Below are positions 1 through 45,336 of a DNA stretch of 45,336 nucleotides, piece by piece (the first letter of the stretch is position 1; every line of letters begins with the position of its first letter). The stretch covers positions 1 through 45,336 of IMG/VR virus record IMGVR_UViG_3300025164_000007; one strand, written 5' to 3'. This DNA is from a virus. The position numbers and the translations under genes are program-made. The notes under the pieces were generated by a model. It saw nothing but the letters and a program-made list of their open reading frames with translations, had not been told where the DNA came from and searched no databases.

Positions 1-99
1 TTCTCGGCGTCTTCCTCGCGCGGTACGTTGATCGTCAACTCTGCGCTGTCGCCGTCTGGTGTGAGCGAGAACTGCTCGAGATAGCCAACCGTGTCTTGC
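1..99. repeat. Terminal direct repeat, copy 1 (circularisation overlap)
   Basis: These 99 bases are identical to 45238-45336. A perfect overlap of this length at both contig ends is what a k-mer assembler leaves when it closes a circle. An open reading frame also continues correctly across the join. The biological genome is therefore taken to be circular or circularly permuted, about 45,237 bp. Confidence 0.95.
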
Positions 100-5237: not shown

Positions 5238-7921
5238 GCATTTACCGCATTGTTTACCCGTTCGATGAAAATCAACGAGGCGTATTCCGGCGTGTGGTCC
5301 GCCGGGTCCATGTAGCTCGACGATGTGATGTGCACCAATCCCGAAGCGGTCCCGCCCTCCGGATACGCTGGCTCAATGTTCACCGTGTGTGTCAGAGGTC
5401 CCCACGCGCCGGCCAACAAGCAAACCAAGTCTGGTTCAACCGGATCGCCGGTGCAACCGACCCGGCGAGCCTGATCAGGAGTCCAAGCTTCATAATCCGC
5501 TTTCCAACCCAACGACGGCGTGTCCAGATTGATCGGATGATTGTGGCGCAATTGCGCAACTGTGTGATTATCTACCGAGGCCTCATGGGTGTGATCGAGC
5601 GCCACCGCAAGCTCAAATTGACTGTGCCCTTCTACGAACACGAATAAATTATGCCAGTGTTCCTTATTTCCGCCCTGTTCGCCGGCGCTAAGCGATCCCC
5701 TCACAAACCGATCGATCAGGCTGATCCCGCTGCCATGGGCGACCGCCGAATTGGCCGATCCGTCCATCACCTCCCAACCTGGCGGGATGGCCGCGACCGA
5801 CCCTGACCACATCTTCACCGTCCCGATCTTGTCGTCCAAATAGTCCGACACGCAGACAAACTTGCCATCCTGCCCCAAGCGCGCGGCGATCACATCACCC
5901 GTGACCACGTTCGGATCCATCTCCGCGACCTGGGGCAGGTAGATAGTCTTAGTCACCCCCGTGTCCACATTGATGCCGTCAACATCTTCCGCCGGATTGC
6001 AGAGGACCGTATCCGCGAACGTCTCGATTCTCCAGTTCTCGCTCGCCTTGAAGTAAAACGTCTCCTGATCCTTCGCGGCCAAATACAGAGGTCTTGCCAC
6101 GCCATCCGTTGGCGTGAAGTCGAACCCGGCCGAATAGGCAACGAACTTGCCACCGTGCGTCAGGAAGTACGGATCGGCCGCGGCATCCGAGCCGAGAAAC
6201 GCGAACCACCCCGCCGTCCCCAGTGTGTTCGTTCCATCGCCGCACAACTCTCCACTTACCTGGGCCGGGGTGACCAGGTTGGCGTCCCACACACAGACCG
6301 GGGTGCCTCCGGCGGTTTCCTCGCTCGCTTGGCCTCGACCATCCGGTGTGCCGGCGACCTGGATCATGAACTGCGGTTGTGCCGACCCGGCTTCACCCTT
6401 CCGCACCAAGTAAACCGGTCTGGTCGAGCCCCCGCTTGTCGCGATTCCGTACAACCGCGCGATGAGTCTGTCCTTCTGTTTCAGCTGGACGATCGCTGAT
6501 TCGCTCACCCCCGACAGGTCGGACGGCCGGATCCAACATGCCTCGAGCGTGTCATAGCCAACAGCCGTCCACCGGATCACAAAACCAGGAAACAGGCCGT
6601 CCACATTGGCCGTCAAGTCCGCGCCCGTCGCGCTTGCCCCATCATCCACCTGTACCAACTGTGCCACGCGCGGATGCACTGGGTAGGAAGGCCTGGACAG
6701 GTCCAGCGTGGCCAGGTGCTCGTCAACGGTCTTGTCGCGCTGCGCTATGCGCTCCGTGATCGGCCGCCGTACGATTTCTGTGACCAGCCCTCCACCGTCC
6801 CCATAGTCACGCCAAATCAATTCCGAGATTTCGGCCCCTGGAATGATTGTCTTGACAAGGCCCGAATACGTGCGCCGCAGGCGCTCCTCCGAGACATCTA
6901 TTCGACGCACGATATTCAGGCCAATCTCGTTTGCGCGTGTCTGCAGCGCAGCTGAGTTCGTGTTTAGGTTCGTGTAATCGAACAACGCTGGCAGATCGTC
7001 CCACACCGACACGATGGTGCCCGCCTGCGCGCCAGCGATAGCCGTCGCGTAGTCCTTCGACACAGCGGGACTCATCTCCCAGTTGTCGACTAAAGGCGTG
7101 TCCATCTCAATGCCGTGGTACGTCTCGCGGCGCGCGAAGAACACCCGAATCTTTTCCGGCATGTTGGCAAGCTGATAATTCTCCTGGGGATCGTAATCGT
7201 AAAGTTTCCTGTCTTCTATCCGATCCAACGCGGCCAGCAATCCTGTTTGCGCAACGCCCAACTGAACGTAGGTGAACACATCCAATATCGGATCGTAAAC
7301 CGTCGTGCAGCCGATCTTTTCCAAAACTACATGCAGCCCACGCCATGCGCTAACACCGATGAACCGCCAACCCTCCGGCGTGCCGTCCGGCGTGTACGGC
7401 AGCGCTGGTGCCGTGCCAGCCACCGTTGACGGCAGACTGGCCCATAGGTTTGTGGCCAATGTTTGCCACGTCCAAACTGACCCGCTGTTCAACGATGCCG
7501 TGTAATACAAACCCGTCCCCGATGTGGTGCTCGGCGCTGGGATCCGTACGTTGTACTGGGCGTTGATCGAGGAATACTGAAGTTGACGCCGTTTGTCCTC
7601 AAGGTATACCAGCCGCGGGGCTCGAGCGTCGCCTGCCACCGATTGGCTCATTGTCGAAGATTTGACGATGGACAGGTTTTCGATATCGATGATCGTCTTT
7701 CCGTCAACGAAACGCAGCGTGTGGAATTCGTTGCGGCCGAGCTCGTCCAGCAACTTCCTGGTCATCAGTACCCACGCCTGGCCAGGCTTCTCTCCCCGGC
7801 CGCACGTGTAGCTGTTGGCTCGTTGCCAGAAATCCGTAGGCGTCCTGTTGGTTATCGCGTATTCGTAGACCTCGCGCGGGTGCGTCAGCCTCTTGCCACC
7901 CAGCTCAGCGTAGATCGCCAC
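5234..7921 (-). CDS. Large tail/collar-domain structural protein
   Basis: 895 residues, GTG start overlapping the previous stop. No recognised domain in the first 600 residues beyond a mixed alpha/beta N-terminus (about 1-90) and repeated strands. Residues about 685-750 (DKIGTVKMWSGSVAAIPPGWEVMDG...LIDRFVRGS) are a phage tail collar-like element, followed by a His-rich region (HWHNLFVFVEGHSQFELAVALDHTHE). A long tail fibre or baseplate protein with a receptor-binding tip is the best interpretation. Confidence 0.6.
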   Translation of the reverse strand: MAIYAELGGKRLTHPREVYEYAITNRTPTDFWQRANSYTCGRGEKPGQAWVLMTRKLLDELGRNEFHTLRFVDGKTIIDIENLSIVKSSTMSQSVAGDARAPRLVYLEDKRRQLQYSSINAQYNVRIPAPSTTSGTGLYYTASLNSGSVWTWQTLATNLWASLPSTVAGTAPALPYTPDGTPEGWRFIGVSAWRGLHVVLEKIGCTTVYDPILDVFTYVQLGVAQTGLLAALDRIEDRKLYDYDPQENYQLANMPEKIRVFFARRETYHGIEMDTPLVDNWEMSPAVSKDYATAIAGAQAGTIVSVWDDLPALFDYTNLNTNSAALQTRANEIGLNIVRRIDVSEERLRRTYSGLVKTIIPGAEISELIWRDYGDGGGLVTEIVRRPITERIAQRDKTVDEHLATLDLSRPSYPVHPRVAQLVQVDDGASATGADLTANVDGLFPGFVIRWTAVGYDTLEACWIRPSDLSGVSESAIVQLKQKDRLIARLYGIATSGGSTRPVYLVRKGEAGSAQPQFMIQVAGTPDGRGQASEETAGGTPVCVWDANLVTPAQVSGELCGDGTNTLGTAGWFAFLGSDAAADPYFLTHGGKFVAYSAGFDFTPTDGVARPLYLAAKDQETFYFKASENWRIETFADTVLCNPAEDVDGINVDTGVTKTIYLPQVAEMDPNVVTGDVIAARLGQDGKFVCVSDYLDDKIGTVKMWSGSVAAIPPGWEVMDGSANSAVAHGSGISLIDRFVRGSLSAGEQGGNKEHWHNLFVFVEGHSQFELAVALDHTHEASVDNHTVAQLRHNHPINLDTPSLGWKADYEAWTPDQARRVGCTGDPVEPDLVCLLAGAWGPLTHTVNIEPAYPEGGTASGLVHITSSSYMDPADHTPEYASLIFIERVNNAVNA

Positions 7922-24194: not shown

Positions 24195-24446
24195 TCAACC
24201 CCGTCCCCTTTTTTTTATGGACCGTGCTGGCCGCTCGCCCTGCGGTCGCTGGAATTGCTCGATGGACGCTTGCGTGATCAGCGGCTGGTTCCCCAAGTAC
24301 ACCCGGTCCAACCAGCCCCATTCGCCGTATCGCCTGATCGTTTCTGACGTCAATCCCAACAATTTCGCCGTCCGTTCGTAGGTGTGGTAGCCGAGTTTCT
24401 CTGAGGTTTCCTCGTCAACTTGGATCTTGATTGGTTTTTTTGCCAT
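24195..24446 (-). CDS. HTH (MerR/excisionase-like) DNA-binding protein
   Basis: 83 residues from the ATG at 24444-24446; a longer reading from 24518 overlaps the divergent start and is rejected. The sequence YERTAKLLGLTSETIRRYGEWGWLDRVYLGNQPLITQASIEQF is the winged HTH layout of MerR/excisionase-like domains, with a Lys/Arg-rich C-terminus. Divergent from the plus-strand protease module, so it is a candidate regulator of that module or of the early minus-strand genes. Confidence 0.6.
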   Translation of the reverse strand: MAKKPIKIQVDEETSEKLGYHTYERTAKLLGLTSETIRRYGEWGWLDRVYLGNQPLITQASIEQFQRPQGERPARSIKKRGRG

Positions 24447-24460
24447 CTTTGGCTTACCGC

Positions 24461-24489
24461 TTGACGGAATCAGATAGTTGAGGTAGTGT
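24461..24489 (+). promoter_or_regulatory. Possible sigma70-type promoter for the plus-strand module
   Basis: TTGACG (24461-24466), 17-base spacer, TAGTGT (24484-24489), followed 28 bases later by the ATG of the first module gene. The -35 is good, the -10 is weak. It lies in the divergent gap between the module and a HTH regulator gene, which could control it. Confidence 0.35.
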
Positions 24490-24516
24490 ACTCCCAGAAG
24501 AACAAGGAGGAAAGTC

Positions 24517-24843
24517 ATGGTCTCTGAAGCCCGTCACACCCTACCACGTTTATTTTTGGTTTGCATGATCGTTCTACTCGTCTGGACTCATTCAGGGATC
24601 GCAGCCCAACGAGAAGTTCGGGTGTTCTGCCCTGGATGCCGCCAAGCGATTCTGAGGCCGGGACAACTCGCGTATCAGTCCTACCAGACGGTGCCCGCGC
24701 TCCGCTGGGGGATTTTTGGGCGCCGGCTCGTGCCGTGCGCCATGTACGTTCCTGGTCCTGTGTACGTGCCATGGATTCCCCCACAGCAAACTCAGCAACA
24801 GTGTCCGCAGCAGCCAGAGCCGCCTGCGCAGCCATCGCCCTGA
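24517..24843 (+). CDS. Secreted small CPGC protein
   Basis: 108 residues with an excellent ribosome site (AAGGAGG, 7 bases before ATG). N-terminal signal peptide (LFLVCMIVLLVWTHSGIAA) followed by a mature part starting QREVRVFCPGCRQAIL, containing a CxxC pair and a Pro/Gln/Tyr-rich C-terminus (PGPVYVPWIPPQQTQQQC). Family unknown. It opens the plus-strand module ahead of the protease; a partner in the same extracellular function is likely. Confidence 0.65.
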   Translation: MVSEARHTLPRLFLVCMIVLLVWTHSGIAAQREVRVFCPGCRQAILRPGQLAYQSYQTVPALRWGIFGRRLVPCAMYVPGPVYVPWIPPQQTQQQCPQQPEPPAQPSP

Positions 24844-25832
24844 TTTCCATCGCCCTGATTGCCGTCGCCCCCTTGCGAGCCGAGATTTGCTTGGTCCGCG
24901 CTCCACTGGGTGGGGGCGCTTACTCCGTGGGACATGGCGTCTATGTGGGCGAGGGCATCGTTCTCACGGCAGCGCATGTGCTGCGGGGGGCCGTAGCCAA
25001 GCCGACCATCACTTTTCTGCAAGCCGGCCAAGCAACCCGCGCGACGGACTGGATCGCATCCCGGCGGTACGACTTGGCCGGACTGATCGTCGCCCCCCCT
25101 GCCGGCGCTCAATCCTCGACGCTCACGAGCCAATGGCCGGCCGGCCCGGTTCGGTCGGCGCGCAGCCGCGGGGCGGCCTTCCGCGGTGTCTCGAATGAGA
25201 GGGGATTCCCCCTGTTTAGCTTCCGCGGCCGTTCAATCCAAGGTGACAGCGGGGGCCCTATCTGGGACGCCGATGGCGTCGTGTCTATCGTTTGCACGAC
25301 TGACGGCACGTCGACCCACGGACCACCCCCAGAGGCCCTCCTGTCGCTTGTCCGACAATGGCGGCCTCGATCCGTGGCCCAAATCTGCCAAACGTGTCCA
25401 TCTGGTGTGCCACCAGACGGCCGAACTGCGATCCCACCAGCGTATCCGCCAATTGGCTCGGTACCGTTGGCAGATCCTGGTGGGACGCAGGCCGCCGTCA
25501 ATGTCGCGCAACTGGCCTCAGCCATCGTTGAACGCATTTCGAAGGACGAGAAGCTACAACAAGCCCTCCGGGGTCCGACGGGCGGCCCGGGGCCCGTTGG
25601 TCCAACTGGGGCGGCCGGTTCGACTGGTGCTGCCGGTCCGATGGGTCCCACAGGTCCCGCTGGCCTGCCGGCCGACGAATCACAAATATCCGCCCTGCAA
25701 GCACAAATTAACCAACTGCAGGAGAGCGTCTTTCAGGTCGAGGTAATCACTCCAAGCGGCCAGTCACTGACCGGCGAAGTGCATGCGCACGGCGGGCTGC
25801 TTAAACTGGATTTTTCAGCGCTCAATCAATGA
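24771..25832 (+). CDS. Secreted trypsin-like serine protease with collagen-like stalk
   Basis: 353 residues from the ATG at 24771 (upstream in-frame starts would prepend an implausible sequence). Signal peptide: hydrophobic core AAIALISIALIAVAP, cleavage after PLRA. S1 protease core with VLTAAHVL (His69), RYDLAGL (Asp101) and GDSGGPI (Ser160), so the complete catalytic triad is present. Residues about 268-298 are Gly-X-Y collagen-like repeats (GPTGGPGPVGPTG, GAAGPMGPTGPAG), followed by a short coiled coil (ISALQAQINQLQESV) and a beta tail. This is the layout of a trimeric stalked protein. It overlaps the preceding gene by 73 bp. Secreted proteases of this kind are unusual in phages. Confidence 0.75.
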   Translation: MDSPTANSATVSAAARAACAAIALISIALIAVAPLRAEICLVRAPLGGGAYSVGHGVYVGEGIVLTAAHVLRGAVAKPTITFLQAGQATRATDWIASRRYDLAGLIVAPPAGAQSSTLTSQWPAGPVRSARSRGAAFRGVSNERGFPLFSFRGRSIQGDSGGPIWDADGVVSIVCTTDGTSTHGPPPEALLSLVRQWRPRSVAQICQTCPSGVPPDGRTAIPPAYPPIGSVPLADPGGTQAAVNVAQLASAIVERISKDEKLQQALRGPTGGPGPVGPTGAAGSTGAAGPMGPTGPAGLPADESQISALQAQINQLQESVFQVEVITPSGQSLTGEVHAHGGLLKLDFSALNQ

Positions 25833-25842
25833 AAGGGTTCCG

Positions 25843-26163
25843 ATGCCAATTCCCGTTTTTGGTTCTGTGCCCGACGCACAGGGCAACCTGAATTTCAAAC
25901 TGTACTCCGACGCCGCGGCCGCCGTCCCGCTCCTGCAATCGCAGGACGCGGCTGCGCACGCCAACCGCGTCAACATCGCAGCCGAAGGTCTTCTGGCGGC
26001 CTGGGGCAGCCGGCTGGTCAGCGTCGATGTGGTGGAGGCCGTGGCCTCGCAGAAACTGCTCTCCGGCCGCGAGTCCATGGGTATTGGGGAAGCGATCGCG
26101 CTAACCCAACAAATCATGAAAGGCGCGCAGACCACTCCACCCGTTACCGGGAAAGTCACCTAA
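25843..26163 (+). CDS. Tandem paralogue 1, about 106 aa, possible R-body-like subunit
   Basis: 106 residues from the ATG at 25843, preceded by GAAAGGG; an upstream in-frame start lies inside the protease gene. Roughly two thirds identical by eye to the next gene, so a tandem duplication. Ala-rich helical composition with SQDAAAHANRVNIAAEGLLAAWG. Sits directly after the secreted protease gene in the same transcription unit. Function is not recognised with confidence. Confidence 0.6.
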   Translation: MPIPVFGSVPDAQGNLNFKLYSDAAAAVPLLQSQDAAAHANRVNIAAEGLLAAWGSRLVSVDVVEAVASQKLLSGRESMGIGEAIALTQQIMKGAQTTPPVTGKVT

Positions 26164-26219
26164 TCGCGACTTCCCGCGCCGATCCACTTGAACCGATTCA
26201 TTAACCGAGGAGAAACAAA

Positions 26220-26531
26220 ATGGCGATCCCAGCGTTCGACAGCATTCCCGATGCCCAAGCCAACCTCAACTTCAAAATGTTCACCGACGCCGCAGCGGCC
26301 GTGCCCTTGCTGATGTCCCAAAATGCCGCCGCACACGCCAATCGGGCCAGCGTGCTTGCTGAATCGCTGATCAGCGCTTGGGGCAACCGGCTGGTGAAGG
26401 TCGATATCGTCGAAGCCGTCAGCGCACAGAAAATGTTGACCGGCCGTGAAAGCCAAGGAATTGCCGAAGCTATCGCCCTGGCACAGCAGCTGATGAAGGG
26501 CGCGCAGACGACACCTCCACCAACTGCATAA
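26220..26531 (+). CDS. Tandem paralogue 2, about 103 aa, possible R-body-like subunit
   Basis: 103 residues, ATG with GAGGAG upstream. Clearly paralogous to the preceding gene along the whole length (PDAQANLNFK, DAAAAVPLL, AAAHANRA, ISAWGNRLV, EAVSAQKMLTGRESQGIAEAIALAQQLMKGAQTTPP). The QNAAAHANR...LAESL...W...L stretch weakly resembles the RebB (killing trait, R-body) family, whose members also occur as tandem paralogues of this size. That link is speculative. No signal peptide or membrane helix. Confidence 0.6.
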   Translation: MAIPAFDSIPDAQANLNFKMFTDAAAAVPLLMSQNAAAHANRASVLAESLISAWGNRLVKVDIVEAVSAQKMLTGRESQGIAEAIALAQQLMKGAQTTPPPTA

Positions 26532-26556
26532 CCCTTCGGTCTTCTAGGGGCTATCC

Positions 26557-26934
26557 GTGATCAAGATCGAAGTGCAGGGGTCGTTCCTATTCGAAGCAGG
26601 CAAGGTCTTTTTCTCGTGGGAGGACAAGACCATTGCCTTTTCGGACATCACGACCATCGAACAACTTCGAGCCGTGCTGATTGCAATCGCCCAGCACAGC
26701 GCCCAGAAGTCAATGGAGCAAATCCTGAAAACTGCCAGCGCCAATACGTCCGCCACTGTCAGCAAAACGGACGCCTTCACCCGTGCAAAGGAACAAATGG
26801 ATCAAGCGCTCGCTGATTCAGAGCGCTCCTTTCGCGAACACCAACGTCGAACAAGCGAAGCGCTCAAACAGGCAGAAAAAGACTTTGAAGCTTCAACTGC
26901 CGTTAACCCCGTTACTGGACGAAGTGCCGACTGA
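26557..26934 (+). CDS. Coiled-coil hypothetical protein
   Basis: 125 residues with a GTG start after AGGGG. The first 40 residues form a short beta domain (IKIEVQGSFLFEAGKVFFSWEDKTI). The rest is a long charged helix (AKEQMDQALADSERSFREHQRRTSEALKQAEKDFE) predicted to be a coiled coil. Unknown role within the plus-strand module. Confidence 0.65.
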   Translation: MIKIEVQGSFLFEAGKVFFSWEDKTIAFSDITTIEQLRAVLIAIAQHSAQKSMEQILKTASANTSATVSKTDAFTRAKEQMDQALADSERSFREHQRRTSEALKQAEKDFEASTAVNPVTGRSAD

Positions 26935-27097
26935 TGCACAGGTCACGAGCGATCTGCTCGACCGCCTCACGTCGCGCACAATCGCCTCGTCCAAAGATCT
27001 GATAGTTCAAATCAAGCAAATGCAAGCTGACGCCGACGAGCGGGTTGACCGTTGGTTGACCCGTACCGAGCAATTTATCGACCGCATGAAGGATTGA
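26924..27097 (+). CDS. Small helical protein (start uncertain)
   Basis: The frame overlaps the end of the previous gene. From the GTG at 26924 the product is 57 residues (MPTDAQVTSDLLDRLTSRTI...), rich in charged helix with MQADADERVDRWLTRTEQF. A TTG at 26885 would give 70. Neither start has a strong ribosome site, so coupling to the upstream gene is likely. Function unknown. Confidence 0.5.
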   Translation: MPTDAQVTSDLLDRLTSRTIASSKDLIVQIKQMQADADERVDRWLTRTEQFIDRMKD

Positions 27098-27101
27098 TCC
27101 A

Positions 27102-27305
27102 ATGGCTGGGTCCGACGAGATTTCCGTGAATCTTGACAGTGACCTCGAAGAGCTGGTCAGTGCCAAAAAACTGGATGCTATGGCAGCCGTGCAACTGCAG
27201 ACTCTCCGCGACTTGCAGGCGTTCTCCGCGCTGGTGATCGAAGATGACTCTAAAAAAAACGTCACCATTCGGATCCGCGCTCGCAAAAAGTCATCAGGCG
27301 ATTGA
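27102..27305 (+). CDS. Small acidic/basic hypothetical protein
   Basis: 67 residues, ATG with AAGGA upstream, 5 bp after the previous stop. Acidic N-terminal half (EISVNLDSDLEELVSAKKLDAMAAVQ) and basic C-terminus (RIRARKKSSGD). No family recognised. It is part of the plus-strand module and its stop overlaps the start of the membrane peptide. Confidence 0.6.
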   Translation: MAGSDEISVNLDSDLEELVSAKKLDAMAAVQLQTLRDLQAFSALVIEDDSKKNVTIRIRARKKSSGD

Positions 27306-27436
27306 CGCTGCGCTGGTGGCTGCTGTTTTCCGCTTATGCATTACTCGTGTCGCTCGTGTCGTGGCTCGGCTATGAATGGTCTACGGCGTCGCCCGATCTA
27401 CCCCCGAAACCGTCAATAGTCCTGGAGACCAAATAA
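27302..27436 (+). CDS. 44-residue single-span membrane peptide
   Basis: A TTG start overlaps the TGA of the previous gene and gives 44 residues: LRWWLLFSAYALLVSLVSWLGYEW is a clear transmembrane helix, followed by a short Pro-rich tail ending IVLETK. There is no other start nearby and the frame is otherwise open only for this length. Small membrane peptides at the end of phage modules can act in lysis or signalling; no family is recognised. Confidence 0.5.
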   Translation: MTLRWWLLFSAYALLVSLVSWLGYEWSTASPDLPPKPSIVLETK

Positions 27437-27454: not shown

Positions 27455-28825
27455 TTAAACAGCCAGCTCGCCTGCCGGAATACCCACCGCGCTGAATACC
27501 TGATCCTCGTTTGTCAGGTCCAAGGTGGACGAAGCATCGTCCAACAATCCGCCGACCGTGTTGTAGTTCAACGGCCAGCTGTTGACGGGCAGCGTGCCTC
27601 CAGTCAGCACGACAGCGCCCGAAACCAAATCTCGCATCAGATTACCCGTGCCGGAATTGTAGAGCTCCGTCGCGTTTGTTGCCGTCAATTGCGCCGACCA
27701 GACCGCGACCTCATCGATGTCCCCAGTAAATGCCCCTGTGACTGCGCCGCTGACCAACACAGAACCGATGGTGATGATGTTCCTGGAAGCGTAATCCGCC
27801 CACCAGTTCCCGTTGTTGGCCCCGGCAACCACCGTCAGCGCTCTTACGGCCCCGTCCACGTAAATCGTCCACGCCGTCCCGCTGCTCACGATCACCACGT
27901 TATGCCAATTCCCGTCGTTGAATCCCTGAACCGTCGTGCGCACTTCGTTGGTGCCGTCCGAAATCCCAACAGCGCCCGGCGTCACGGTTCCGTACACGAA
28001 CAATCCAAGCCGGCTTGTCCCCGCCGACTGGCTGCTGGCGAATACGTAATTCGGCCCGTCGGTCGCCGTACTCTTGAACCAAAAGCTGACTGAACCTGAT
28101 GAATCGGCCAAACGATAGTCAGCAATGTTCCGGTACAGGTAGCTGCCGGCTAACCCGTGGTTCACACTGAATCTGCCGGCCAAGTCCGATACGCCCCCCC
28201 CATCAATCTCAATCCTGAAGTCGTAAAACGTGATCGCGCGCACCGCGGCCAATGGTTCGGTCTGAGTCCTCAGCCGGATCCCGAATGACGTACCGGCTGA
28301 ATTGTACAACCCAGTCACGTCTATCGAGTATTCTTGTTGCACGACTGCCCCGGTCGTGTCAAACGTTCCCAAGGTTCCCAGCGATGTGGCATTCAGATCG
28401 GCCAAGCCCTCCGCGTTGTCACCTGTGTAGGCTTCGGCCGTGATGACGCCCGCATATGGCGTCGTCTGTCCGAACAGCCCACCTACCGTCACTCCCGTGA
28501 TATCGGTGACATCGAATACCTTGAACTTGAGCACGGCTGTGCACGCATCGGCTTTCCCGGCGATGTCGAATTCGGCGAGTCCTCTGATGAACTCGGTTGC
28601 ATCCCCGGCAATCGAACCCACTTCGGCCACTTGCAACGGCAACGCCGGAACTGGTGAGCCAGCGATGTTCGCATGCCAGTGGTCCACGTCTCCGGCTCCG
28701 TGGTTCCCGTTGGCCAACGAAAACACCAGTGGTGCCGCGAACGCCTCGGGATTCGGCGACACCGCGCCGGACGTAAGCCCGTGGATGCCCCCGGGCCCGC
28801 CAGAACCAAAATCCGGTCCACCCAT
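27455..28825 (-). CDS. LamG/concanavalin A-like domain adhesin
   Basis: 456 residues, ATG after TTGGAG. The C-terminal half has the LamG signature order: GSVSFWFKSTATDG, GNWHNVVIVSSGTAWTIYVDG, then GDIDEVAVWSAQLTATNATELYNSG. This jelly-roll fold binds carbohydrate. The N-terminal half is a separate beta domain of unknown type. It is the last gene of the minus-strand late block and ends about 20 bp from the convergent plus-strand module, with no strong terminator between them. Confidence 0.75.
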   Translation of the reverse strand: MGGPDFGSGGPGGIHGLTSGAVSPNPEAFAAPLVFSLANGNHGAGDVDHWHANIAGSPVPALPLQVAEVGSIAGDATEFIRGLAEFDIAGKADACTAVLKFKVFDVTDITGVTVGGLFGQTTPYAGVITAEAYTGDNAEGLADLNATSLGTLGTFDTTGAVVQQEYSIDVTGLYNSAGTSFGIRLRTQTEPLAAVRAITFYDFRIEIDGGGVSDLAGRFSVNHGLAGSYLYRNIADYRLADSSGSVSFWFKSTATDGPNYVFASSQSAGTSRLGLFVYGTVTPGAVGISDGTNEVRTTVQGFNDGNWHNVVIVSSGTAWTIYVDGAVRALTVVAGANNGNWWADYASRNIITIGSVLVSGAVTGAFTGDIDEVAVWSAQLTATNATELYNSGTGNLMRDLVSGAVVLTGGTLPVNSWPLNYNTVGGLLDDASSTLDLTNEDQVFSAVGIPAGELAV

Positions 28826-29296: not shown

Positions 29297-30604
29297 TCAT
29301 CCTCCGATGAGCACATTACGTGCTCCGCCACCTGCTGGATCGGTATGTTGAACCGCACCGATGTCTTTGTTGTCCGTTTGTCCCCACGTTCCTACCCCAG
29401 CACCTCTCAACTCCGCGCCGCCCCCCACTGTGCTGTTTGGGCGAAAGTCGCCGCCAGCCCGATTGACGTACGGATCGGCTGTGAGCGTTATTGGATTCAC
29501 GTTTTGTTTTGTGGTGCCAGTTGATCGTCCGGCGGTATTGTTGTAATCCGCACAATTAATTAAGCTACCCGCGCCATAAGCACGATAGCCGTAGCCCGTA
29601 TTGTTGGTTGCTAAACAGTTCAGAACAAAACCGGAAGTGCTATCTACAAGGTCAAAACCATCACCACCGCAACCGTCAGCGGTGCAATTCAGAATACCGC
29701 TAGCACCTGAACGAAATCCGTCGGCGCTGCAGGATCGGGCTAGACCGGACGCATGAAAGCCACCACCGAATCCGTTGGTGCACGAGATTGCCTGAGAACA
29801 AAATGTTGCCACTGTATTGAAGCCAGTACCACAGCCAGATGCTTGGCAACTCGTTGCAAGTACGCCGCCGTTGAATCCATTCGTAGGGCAATCCAGAGCT
29901 TCACAAAATTCAAAAAAAGTTCGATTGCCTCCAGTAAATCCGCTGACGGTGCTTTGCGAATTGCCGTCTGCCTTGAGGTTTACAAACAGCTGAAAATCAC
30001 CGCTTACTCCTGAAAACATTGTAATGGCGGTAATTGCCCCAGCGCTGACAATCGGCCGAGCGGCGCGATCGCCACGTGCAGCCGAATAGCCCTCCATCTT
30101 GAATCGAATGTTAGTTGCCACTACTATCGGACCAGCAGGACCAGGTGTTGCGGTGGTGAGGGTATAAGTGCCTGTTTTTACCCACACTTCCTGGCCATCA
30201 ACAGTCGCCAGAACTGCTGCCTGACCCGGAGTAGCGAGGGCTCCGCCTAACGTGCCTGTTCCACCAGTCGAGCCAACTGCTGCCGGACTCCGGTCAAGGG
30301 TCATGTACCCAGAGCCGTCCATTGAGGTTTCTGTGATTTGATAGAAACCACCTGTCCACGCGCCTCCTGTGACGATCTGAATTAGATTGCCGCGATCTGT
30401 GCCATCGAATGCCCGCGGACTCCCACCAGTGCTCTTGATCTTGGTGTTGGTGGTTGCATGGACTTCCAGGTCCGTCCAGGTTGTGGCAGCTTGGGATGCC
30501 CCGTAGCTCTTGTCGGTGCCAAGAGAGTCCGAGCGAAACCCGCCGCCGTTCGTGTCGACGCCTGTGGTTTGCACCTCGAAGACGGTATTTGCATGAAGGG
30601 CCAT
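29297..30604 (-). CDS. Tail spike-like protein, paralogue of the preceding spike
   Basis: 435 residues. The anchor (MALHANTVFEVQTTGVDTNGGGF) and the C-terminal cap (DIGAVQHTDPAGGGARNVLIGG) match the upstream spike, while the central beta-helix is different and Gly/Cys-rich (CQASGCGTGFNTVATFCSQAI, then CTADGCGGDGFDLVD). Conserved ends with a diverged middle indicate modular exchange of the binding domain. A role in host-surface recognition is inferred. Confidence 0.7.
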   Translation of the reverse strand: MALHANTVFEVQTTGVDTNGGGFRSDSLGTDKSYGASQAATTWTDLEVHATTNTKIKSTGGSPRAFDGTDRGNLIQIVTGGAWTGGFYQITETSMDGSGYMTLDRSPAAVGSTGGTGTLGGALATPGQAAVLATVDGQEVWVKTGTYTLTTATPGPAGPIVVATNIRFKMEGYSAARGDRAARPIVSAGAITAITMFSGVSGDFQLFVNLKADGNSQSTVSGFTGGNRTFFEFCEALDCPTNGFNGGVLATSCQASGCGTGFNTVATFCSQAISCTNGFGGGFHASGLARSCSADGFRSGASGILNCTADGCGGDGFDLVDSTSGFVLNCLATNNTGYGYRAYGAGSLINCADYNNTAGRSTGTTKQNVNPITLTADPYVNRAGGDFRPNSTVGGGAELRGAGVGTWGQTDNKDIGAVQHTDPAGGGARNVLIGG

Positions 30605-30628
30605 AGTAGTTCACGTAAGTGCCAAATG

Positions 30629-32059
30629 TCATCCTCCGATCAGCACATTACGTGTTCCTCCTCCAACTGGATCGGCGTGTTGGGAAGCGCCGAGGTCGCG
30701 ATTCGACAATGTGGCAGCGTTGCCGGGCCAAGTCTCTGGCAACCCAGCCCCGCGCAATAAAGCGCCCTGATTGGCAATATCGTTTAAATCGTAATCATTG
30801 GCAGCGGCATTTATGTATTGTGATCCAACCGTTACGGTGACATCGAGAACATTCGTGTACGGTGCAACGCTGTTGATCCCGGTCGTGTTGTCCATGTTAT
30901 TGCGGCTCCCACTTGTGTTCGCAGGATACCCAAATGCGTTACCGTCCCAGTTTGAATCTGCTGGATTTCCGGACGACAGCGCAAATTCGATCCCATAACC
31001 TCCATTCCCGGAGATGGAATTGTTCTGCCAATAGGACCCAATCAATGTATTGTCTGATGTGCTACTGATGCCATGCCGCCCATTGCCGTGAATCGTGTTT
31101 CCGACAACGATGCAAGCCCACCATACTTGGATGCCATCCGAAGACGCGCCAGTATTATTCGTGACGACGTTATTCAGCACGACCATCAAATTCGAGCCGC
31201 TTGCAGCAACAATTCCTGTACATGCATTGTCGTGGATATAATTCCCTATTACGGCAACATTGCCCACGACGGAAATAGCTCCTGAAGCCGCGCTTGTACC
31301 GTTAGTGATCTCATTTGCAGAGACTACTGTGATCGGGCTGGTTGAGGTTGGTTCAATGCCGACTGAAGTGAACCTATGGACTTTGCAATTTCTGACCACG
31401 GAATAGAACACGGTTCGTATTCCCTTTGATGTGCCGAGATTCGCGCAATCAACCTCGATGTTCTCGATCCACCATCCGTTGCCAGTGGCATCAAGCCCAA
31501 TAAGACCCGTACTTGTCGACAAAGTCAAAACTGCTCTTCCGGCATCACCTCTTGTAGTTGAGTAGCCAATCAACCTATTCGGCATCGTCACACTACCGGG
31601 AGTTACGCTGACAGACAACGTTGTCGTTACGGTGCTGGTGAAGGATCCTTTAACGAAGACTTTGTTGCTCGCAACCATCGCACCGGCCGCTTTCGCTATG
31701 GACGCCAAAGCGCCGCCCATCGCACCAACGACCGTCTGGCCCGCCGTACCGACAGACCGGTCAACTGTCCAGCGGTTAAACACTGTGTCGGCAGCAATGA
31801 TGCGGTAGAAGCCAGCTGTCGCGGTGCCCCCAGTAATTTGAAGAATGTTCCCGACGTCAGCGGCAATCACCGTGTAGTCCGTCGTCGACACATTGATCTG
31901 CTCAGTCGTCGTGTGAACCGTGCTGAGAGTGGTGAGTGTGGCGTGTGCCGCAGCTTGCTGGGATCGATCCGTACCAGATGCTTCAGCGACGAAACCTCCG
32001 CCGTTGCCATCCGATCCAGTGTCCCTGACCTCCCAGACAGTATTAGCTGACAAGGCCAT
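30629..32059 (-). CDS. Tail spike-like protein, right-handed beta-helix
   Basis: 476 residues. The N-terminal anchor MALSANTVWEVRDTGSDGNGGGF is shared with the neighbouring spike. The centre is a series of short parallel strands with Asn ladders (VVLNNVVTNNTGASSDGIQVWW, GNTIHGNGRHGISS), typical of a parallel beta-helix/pectate-lyase fold used for polysaccharide recognition or cleavage. It ends DLGASQHADPVGGGTRNVLIGG, again shared with the neighbour. The last three codons plus stop (ATC GGA GGA TGA) form the Shine-Dalgarno of the next gene. Confidence 0.7.
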   Translation of the reverse strand: MALSANTVWEVRDTGSDGNGGGFVAEASGTDRSQQAAAHATLTTLSTVHTTTEQINVSTTDYTVIAADVGNILQITGGTATAGFYRIIAADTVFNRWTVDRSVGTAGQTVVGAMGGALASIAKAAGAMVASNKVFVKGSFTSTVTTTLSVSVTPGSVTMPNRLIGYSTTRGDAGRAVLTLSTSTGLIGLDATGNGWWIENIEVDCANLGTSKGIRTVFYSVVRNCKVHRFTSVGIEPTSTSPITVVSANEITNGTSAASGAISVVGNVAVIGNYIHDNACTGIVAASGSNLMVVLNNVVTNNTGASSDGIQVWWACIVVGNTIHGNGRHGISSTSDNTLIGSYWQNNSISGNGGYGIEFALSSGNPADSNWDGNAFGYPANTSGSRNNMDNTTGINSVAPYTNVLDVTVTVGSQYINAAANDYDLNDIANQGALLRGAGLPETWPGNAATLSNRDLGASQHADPVGGGTRNVLIGG

Positions 32060-44414: not shown

Positions 44415-45336
44415 TTAGCGCTTGCGCAGTATCTCGTCTACTACCTTGTCGGCCTGTTCGGGCGTCAATGCTTCGCCCGCTTGCTCCGGCCTTTCGACAA
44501 CCTCCATGCGCAGCAACCGAGTTCGTGTTTCCGGGTCCCAAAATGTTCCCTTCGGGACCGCTTCACGACTCGCGATCCAAATCTCAAGATTCGTCGGCTG
44601 CGCGTTCCCGTCATCGTCCAAACTCAACCGGATCGCTTTCACTGCCGGCTGCCTGGACTTGTACTCGGCTGGTGTGCACTGACCAGAAGCCACCAGCGCA
44701 CTCAACCTTGTGGCAACTGTGCCGCGGTGGTGATGGGCCAAGTATTTGAGTTGCCTGTCCGAGGCGGTCGGCTTCTGTTTGTCCAGCGACATCGCGAACT
44801 CCGGTTGCGTGATTTCCATCGGCTCTTCAGCCGGGCCCTCGCCAGCGCCCATCGCCGTAGCCGTCAACAAAGCCTGTTCCAAGTGCTGCAAGAAGTTTTC
44901 CTCGTTCGTGTCGTCCGACAGCACGATCTGCATACCGGCCAGCGCGTCGAGCACCTTTTTCAACCGGTCCCCCTCGTTGTTGACTTCCGATTCTTCCGGT
45001 GGTTTCTTGTCTTCAGGCATGTCCTTATCTTCCCCTTGCAGCCGGTAGATCACCGGTTTGCCTATGTCCAGTCCCAGCCGCAGTGCGCAAGCCACCGGCT
45101 GAAACTCCGATTGGCGCTGGTCCACCGGGTGCTGCACCAGGTCCACATGCGTTATGCAATCCGTCCACTCTTGCCCGTCCCCGTCTTTCCAAGTTTCAAA
45201 TACCACTGGGGACAGCTCGGCCAGGTTGTTCTTAACCTTCTCGGCGTCTTCCTCGCGCGGTACGTTGATCGTCAACTCTGCGCTGTCGCCGTCTGGTGTG
45301 AGCGAGAACTGCTCGAGATAGCCAACCGTGTCTTGC
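44415..45336 (-). CDS. Capsid maturation protease/scaffold, C-terminal part
   Basis: Continuation of the gene starting at base 311 on the circle; if the window is treated as linear, only a TTG-started fragment from 45275 is visible. The protease-like part ends near ITHVDLVQHPV. After it comes an acidic, lysine-rich linker (DKDMPEDKKPPEESE) and a helical Glu/Gln-rich tail of about 190 residues. That is what is expected of a scaffold fused behind an S14/S78/Mu-I type protease. The next gene downstream is the decoration protein and then the major capsid protein. The family assignment is from motif pattern and synteny; catalytic residues were not pinned down. Confidence 0.7.
   Translation of the reverse strand, partial: QDTVGYLEQFSLTPDGDSAELTINVPREEDAEKVKNNLAELSPVVFETWKDGDGQEWTDCITHVDLVQHPVDQRQSEFQPVACALRLGLDIGKPVIYRLQGEDKDMPEDKKPPEESEVNNEGDRLKKVLDALAGMQIVLSDDTNEENFLQHLEQALLTATAMGAGEGPAEEPMEITQPEFAMSLDKQKPTASDRQLKYLAHHHRGTVATRLSALVASGQCTPAEYKSRQPAVKAIRLSLDDDGNAQPTNLEIWIASREAVPKGTFWDPETRTRLLRMEVVERPEQAGEALTPEQADKVVDEILRKR
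45238..45336. repeat. Terminal direct repeat, copy 2 (circularisation overlap)
   Basis: Identical to bases 1-99; one copy is redundant. A true physical terminal repeat of 99 bp cannot be excluded from sequence alone, but the k-mer-like length favours an assembly artefact of a circular map. Confidence 0.95.

What the first reader, a model, noticed from the sequence alone, without database searches (positions are those of the whole stretch)
24517..27436. Plus-strand module with a secreted collagen-stalked trypsin-like protease
The only long plus-strand block encodes a secreted CPGC protein and a protease with complete His/Asp/Ser triad, signal peptide and Gly-X-Y collagen stalk, plus tandem small paralogues and a membrane peptide. 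It looks like an independently expressed accessory system acting outside the cytoplasm, perhaps on the host envelope, on competitors or at lysis. No classical endolysin was found elsewhere.
Basis: partly seen in the sequence, partly recalled or inferred. Interest (0 to 1): 0.78.

Follow-up and report, generated by a model that had tools for sequence, protein, structure and literature searches.

The report
Phage protease plus R-body-like gene cassette
An uncultivated tailed phage carries a small separate gene cassette that combines a probably exported trypsin-like protease with two relatives of Reb, the protein that bacteria build into spring-like R-bodies; the same cassette sits in a second, otherwise unrelated phage, and one published survey looked for Reb relatives in phages and found none.

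Summary
In detail: 24517-27436 is the only supported plus-strand gene block of a 45 kb tailed phage. It encodes a trypsin-like protease with a complete His69/Asp101/Ser160 triad, 11 Gly-X-Y triplets, a CPGC protein, tandem paralogues and a membrane peptide. The emphasis shifts, however. The most conserved part is the pair of 'small paralogues', not the protease. They belong to a family found in 21 uncultivated phage contigs (about 20 phages) and are homologous to bacterial Reb (R-body, 'killing trait') proteins: family profile against bacterial Rebs 95.8% probability, controls at most 1.5%; one member passes Pfam's RebB cut-off. A 69.5 kb phage shares nothing with the window except protease - Reb-like - Reb-like - coiled-coil gene - two small genes, in the same order. 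So it is a self-contained accessory cassette, not a virion operon. The relative keeps the triad but not the collagen repeat or CPGC gene. Neither gene family was found in 50,697 phage records. Phage Reb-like operons have partner genes absent from bacterial reb loci. Whether they polymerise like R-bodies, and what the protease cuts, is untested. Side finding: Reb's signature peptide VNxQITD[A/S]VTQ is embedded in many unrelated phage proteins under peptide-level selection.

The parts
24517..24843 (+). CPGC protein, 108 aa, hydrophobic N-terminus, Cys-x-x-Cys; not found in the relative
   Evidence: ORF with strong ribosome site AGGAGG; no family match above cut-off; no convincing hit in L002
24771..25832 (+). 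trypsin-like serine protease, 353 aa: hydrophobic N-terminus, protease domain with His69/Asp101/Ser160, 11 Gly-X-Y triplets, coiled coil and conserved C-terminal beta domain
   Evidence: Pfam Trypsin_2 4e-8; relative in L002 6558-7208 47% identical with intact triad; C-terminal domain homologous to L002 7233-7649
25572..25670 (+). collagen-like Gly-X-Y stalk within the protease (approximate limits)
   Evidence: 11 triplets, shuffle maximum 6; absent from L002
25843..26163 (+). Reb-like paralogue 1, 106 aa
   Evidence: family A1/A5; homologous to bacterial Reb through the family profile
26220..26531 (+). Reb-like paralogue 2, 103 aa; one long helix predicted (residues 9-59), C-terminal QQLMKGAQTTPPPT motif
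26557..26934 (+). orf5, 125 aa, N-terminal module plus coiled-coil segment
   Evidence: homologue in L002 8331-8717, 41% identical
26924..27097 (+). orf6, about 57 aa, in the +1 frame overlapping the end of orf5 (start inferred)
   Evidence: homologous to the end of L002 8605-8856; 0 of 1000 shuffles as good
27102..27305 (+). orf7, 67 aa
   Evidence: homologous to L002 8849-9031; 0 of 1000 shuffles as good
27302..27436 (+). orf8, 44 aa, one hydrophobic helix, ends IVLETK
   Evidence: an open frame at the same place in L002 (9022-9189) encodes a hydrophobic peptide ending VILETK; sequence match alone not significant (182 of 1000 shuffles as good)
24195..24518 (-). divergent gene next to the cassette with a helix-turn-helix look; probable regulator (inferred; true start probably an internal ATG)
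   Evidence: sequence; HTH families occur among the scanned set but the output does not name the member

Best explanation
The block is a mobile accessory ('moron'-like) cassette of tailed phages, not a virion operon. Its core is a pair of small, mostly helical proteins of the Reb superfamily, made with a coiled-coil partner, two further small proteins and a membrane peptide. In this phage and one other it is preceded by a serine protease that is probably exported and held as an oligomer by its coiled-coil/C-terminal domain (plus a collagen-like stalk here). Most likely mechanism (inferred): in late infection the Reb-like proteins assemble in the host cytoplasm into an ordered polymer with the coiled-coil partner, while the protease works in the envelope; together they change or weaken the host envelope or act on neighbouring cells once released. 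Shown: gene content, homology, colinearity, selection, intact triad. Inferred: export, polymer formation, timing and target.
For: Only the cassette is shared by the window and the 69.5 kb contig G001: tblastn of 60 window genes found the protease, both paralogues and orf5, nothing else, although the phages differ in G+C (58% against 42-45%). orf6 and orf7 also match at the same place. In four further phage contigs that were searched whole only the Reb-like gene is shared. Reb homology: a profile of 18 bacterial Rebs built independently hits only the Reb-like genes in six-frame translations of the window and the phage loci L002-L017 (best 1.5e-6); profile-profile 95.7-95.8%, reversed 0.13%, 40 column-shuffled at most 1.47%; the L003 member is over Pfam's RebB cut-off. 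Tandem copies recur: 2 in L002, 2 in L078, 3 in L086, as in bacterial reb loci (4-11 copies). Long helix predicted, mean pLDDT 69, in line with published Reb models (PMC13430693). A short charged, helix-rich gene follows directly in L003-L008, L013, L079, L083 and L084.
Against: The window pair plus its closest relatives alone do not reach Reb (0.44%); the link runs through other family members. The phage partner genes are not in bacterial reb loci, so function may differ. Most phage members are single-copy, whereas published R-bodies need several Reb proteins. The phage family lacks the QITD signature. The full cassette with protease was found in two contigs only, so the link between protease and Reb-like genes rests on one comparison. 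Export is not predicted by a dedicated program.
Confidence: 0.5

Rival explanations
1. Virion part: the collagen-like protease is a tail-fibre-type protein that opens the host surface at adsorption, and the small proteins are its assembly factors.
For: Collagen-like repeats in phages are mostly tail proteins: the best PHROG matches of the stalk are tail fibres. A LamG-domain protein and beta-helix proteins lie next door on the other strand.
Against: Opposite strand from the whole structural operon; the cassette recurs in an unrelated phage without any shared structural gene; the relative lacks the collagen repeat; a hydrophobic, signal-like N-terminus is unusual for virion proteins.
Confidence: 0.18
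2. Lysis module: the exported protease stands in for an endolysin or spanin, with orf8 as holin-like peptide and the Reb-like polymer as an envelope-breaking device.
For: No lysin family found in the window; holin-type genes sit directly beside the Reb-like gene in L004 (3.7e-9), and weakly in L010 (0.0014) and L078 (0.019).
Against: Other Reb-like genes sit next to terminase-like genes or near replication and recombination genes (L083, L086, L084, L085). The small peptide orf8 has no holin match. Most window genes are unassigned, so a lysin may be missed.
Confidence: 0.17
3. Benefit-to-host cargo: the cassette is expressed in infected or lysogenic hosts and harms predators or competitors, as bacterial R-bodies do for Paramecium.
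For: Reb homology; bacterial R-bodies were long suspected to be phage-borne (PMC3583457).
Against: No integrase or lysogeny genes recognised in the window; no toxin domain; host unknown.
Confidence: 0.1
4. Chance neighbours: an envelope protease gene and a Reb-like pair that only happen to be adjacent.
For: Most phages with the Reb-like gene lack the protease.
Against: The same order of six genes in two phages with nothing else in common.
Confidence: 0.05

Closest known systems
Reb (RebA/B/D) R-body proteins, Pfam PF11747 'Killing trait'
   Same: about 90-110 aa, mostly helical; N-x-K-xxx-[DE] and NA(x)HQQ-like motifs correspond to KXXXD/E and NAV-QQQ; tandem copies in several phages
   Different: no QITD signature, a gap of about 11-17 residues, a conserved C-terminal KGAQTTPP motif in most members, 1-3 copies instead of 4-11, different partner genes
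Trypsin-like serine proteases (Pfam Trypsin_2 PF13365; weak resemblance to glutamyl endopeptidases)
   Same: complete triad in TAAHV, YDLAGL and GDSGGP contexts in window and relative
   Different: joined to a collagen-like stalk and a C-terminal domain seen here only in these two phages; no tblastn hit in 50,697 phages or 72,556 plasmids; PDB match to glutamyl endopeptidase only at E=0.02
Collagen-like phage tail fibre proteins
   Same: Gly-X-Y stalk in a phage protein
   Different: not in the structural operon, carries a protease domain and a hydrophobic N-terminus, repeat not conserved in the relative

Membership tests
Reb / R-body proteins (PF11747) | significant match to the family profile | tested here: met
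   Family level: hhalign 95.8%, controls at most 1.5%; one member over the Pfam cut-off. The window's own two proteins alone: no match.
Reb / R-body proteins (PF11747) | QITD signature with flanking prolines (PMC13430693) | tested here: not met
   absent from all 28 phage members and from the whole window
Reb / R-body proteins (PF11747) | KXXXD/E motif | tested here: met
   N-F-K-xxx-[DE] in nearly all members; window K-MFT-D and K-LYS-D
R-body system | locus with several reb genes and the known partner genes | tested here: not met
   two copies in the window; phage partner families not found in eight bacterial reb loci
R-body system | forms extendable ribbon polymers | not testable with these tools
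   needs expression and electron microscopy
Trypsin-like serine proteases | His-Asp-Ser triad and family profile | tested here: met
Exported protein | cleavable signal peptide | tested here: inconclusive
   hydrophobic stretch before A-E-I-C in both proteases and conserved cysteines; no predictor run, start codon uncertain
Phage tail fibre with collagen-like domain | encoded in the structural operon, part of the particle | tested here: not met
   opposite strand, cassette moves without structural genes; particle content not testable here
Phage lysis cassette | holin, endolysin and spanin genes together | tested here: inconclusive
   no such family in the window, but holin-type neighbours in some related loci

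The most novel reading that the evidence does not exclude
Tailed phages carry their own branch of R-body machinery: Reb-like polymers, here armed with a secreted protease, that break or remodel cell envelopes at lysis or on release, which would supply the long-suspected phage connection of R-bodies.
Probability: 0.2. Interest if true: 0.85.

Novelty: new variant of a known kind. Interest (0 to 1): 0.62.

Why it matters
R-bodies have been suspected of phage origin since phage-like particles were seen with them, yet the 2013 survey states that no Reb homologues were found in phage genomes (PMC3583457), and the main text of the 2026 phylogeny does not mention phages (PMC13430693). A diverged but statistically clear Reb branch in about 20 uncultivated phages, with its own partner genes, makes that question testable with small, easily expressed proteins. 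The protease version suggests an envelope-directed weapon or lysis aid of a kind I found no description of.

Tried and rejected
Protease relatives in IMG/VR: nothing by single sequence, only the already known L002 by alignment. INPHARED: no match for the paralogue, other family members, a bacterial Reb or the protease; PLSDB: none. orf5 alone finds nothing. AlphaFold of the protease from two sequences failed (pLDDT 34), so no fold search was made with it. Foldseek of the Reb-like model: no match with E below 2.7. PDB profile searches for the family and for Reb: none. The C-terminal KGAQTT motif as a general tag: rejected, because searches selected for it and two members without it (L083, L084) turned up when the N-terminal half was used; the serine recombinase ending in KGAQTTPP (L019) is by my estimate within the number expected by chance. 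A programmed frameshift joining orf5 and orf6: considered, not supported; an overlapping start (GTG at 26924) is simpler. Cysteine protease upstream of the L003 gene (Cys and His contexts by eye): no family or PDB support. Host of the phage: not determined; capsid and portal have no match in annotated phages. Gene order around Reb-like genes as proof of a lysis role: rejected, contexts are mixed. Short-peptide tblastn of the Reb signature against INPHARED gave no match, but such a short query is probably below that search's sensitivity.

Full report
What is there. The window is a 45.3 kb virus record (IMG/VR) with a 99 bp direct terminal repeat, so probably complete. It is a tailed phage: large terminase, Mu-F-like head protein, Mu-type portal, major head protein, decoration protein and connector genes are recognised, all on the minus strand. 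The protease has family support (Trypsin_2, 4e-8), a complete triad (His69, Asp101, Ser160) and 11 Gly-X-Y triplets against a maximum of 6 in 20,000 shuffles.

A cassette, not a piece of the virion operon. Searching the second paralogue in 2.9 million viral contigs brought up a 69.5 kb contig (L002; G001) with the same genes in the same order: protease (6558-7208), C-terminal domain (7233-7649), two paralogues (7653, 8001), orf5 (8331), orf6 and orf7 (8849). An open frame at the position of orf8 also encodes a hydrophobic peptide with a similar end (VILETK), but the match alone is not significant. When all 60 called window genes were compared with the whole of G001, the cassette was the only thing in common, although the genomes differ in base composition (58% against 42-45% G+C). 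Differences between the two copies fall mainly on third codon positions, so the genes are under purifying selection; the paralogues are the best conserved (79-84% identical), the protease and orf5 less (41-45%).

What is and is not conserved. The relative keeps the protease triad, two cysteines of the domain (Cys40, Cys175) and the C-terminal coiled coil plus beta domain. It does not have the collagen repeat (a Pro-Ala-Glu repeat lies there), nor a CPGC gene, and a TGA codon separates protease and C-terminal domain in one frame; TGA is an ordinary stop in that phage, so there the gene is split, read through, or carries a stop mutation. The stalk and the CPGC protein, on which the finding put weight, are therefore not essential to the cassette.

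The paralogues are Reb-superfamily proteins. The family was extended to 28 sequences from 21 phage contigs and one proteobacterial MAG fragment. Two contigs (L015, L016) carry what look like copies of one locus, so this is about 20 different phages. Some members match Pfam RebB 'killing trait' (best 8.5e-5; one over the curated cut-off). To test this independently, bacterial Rebs were taken from alphaproteobacterial genomes and aligned. A profile made from them alone hits, in six-frame translations of the phage loci, only the Reb-like genes; profile-profile comparison gives 95.7-95.8%, against 0.13% for the reversed and at most 1.47% for 40 column-shuffled controls. The window and L002 sequences by themselves are too diverged to show it (0.44%), so for the window the homology is transitive. 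Of the published Reb signatures (PMC13430693) the KXXXD/E motif is kept; QITD is missing. AlphaFold predicts one long helix.

What it is not. Bacterial reb loci (eight examined) have 4-11 reb genes and neither of the phage partner families. In phages the Reb-like gene is present once to three times and is often followed by a short, charged, helix-rich gene. Its place in the genome varies: beside holin-type genes in L004, L010 and L078, after what looks like a terminase gene in L083 and L086, near replication genes in L084. This fits a small mobile accessory operon rather than a structural or a fixed lysis gene. I therefore file it as a phage branch of the Reb superfamily and do not call it an R-body system.

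Mechanism. Shown: gene content, order, selection, homology, intact catalytic residues. Inferred: the protease is exported and oligomeric; the Reb-like proteins polymerise with orf5; the module acts on the envelope or outside late in infection. The three main alternatives (particle component, lysis module, cargo that harms predators or competitors) cannot be told apart here; the reasons for and against each are listed in the rivals.

Known work. The 2013 survey of Reb proteins (PMC3583457) asked about a phage origin and reported no Reb homologues in phages; the 2026 phylogeny (PMC13430693) has no mention of phages in its main text. Full-text searches for Reb and phage found nothing that describes such genes, within the open-access library only. 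In INPHARED, neither a bacterial Reb nor three phage family members gave a tblastn hit.

Side finding. Searching viral contigs with bacterial Rebs returned not Rebs but unrelated phage proteins that contain the Reb N-terminal peptide. The proteins include a GGDHY...QPW (DUF3310-like) protein, proteins with peptidoglycan-binding-like repeats, scaffold-like, membrane and lipoprotein-like proteins (names by eye), sometimes with two copies. At DNA level the first two codon positions are 90-95% identical and the third 38%, near the 27% of the flanks, and third-position G+C follows the genome (r=0.80), so selection is on the peptide, not on a mobile DNA element. In 299 Pseudomonadota genomes the same pattern occurs ten times in three genomes; those translated read as Reb proteins, with one (L218) shown only in part. 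The peptide is not in the window and no paper in the library prints it. It deserves its own study.

Noticed in passing
Codon third positions are free and follow genome G+C, so the peptide is selected: a portable short motif, not a mobile DNA element. In 299 Pseudomonadota genomes it was seen ten times in three genomes, in Reb proteins where checked.
   Followed up: partly
L086 5157-6339 and L078 6001-6583: Tandem Reb-like genes in other phages (three copies after a terminase-like gene in L086, two in L078).
   Followed up: partly
L002 7206-7208: In-frame TGA between the protease and its C-terminal domain in the relative, with recognisable sequence (SVA..TCP) continuing after it and TGA used as a normal stop elsewhere in that phage: split gene, readthrough or stop mutation.
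   Followed up: partly
window 1-99 and 45238-45336: 99 bp direct terminal repeat: the record is probably a complete circular or circularly permuted genome.
   Followed up: no
L003 6761-7948: 395 aa protein upstream of a Reb-like gene with Cys and His contexts reminiscent of a papain-like enzyme; no family or PDB match.
   Followed up: partly
window 29297-32059: Two related neighbouring genes with beta-helix repeats (435 and 476 aa), next to a LamG-type lectin-like gene at 27455-28825: probable tail or surface-binding proteins.
   Followed up: no
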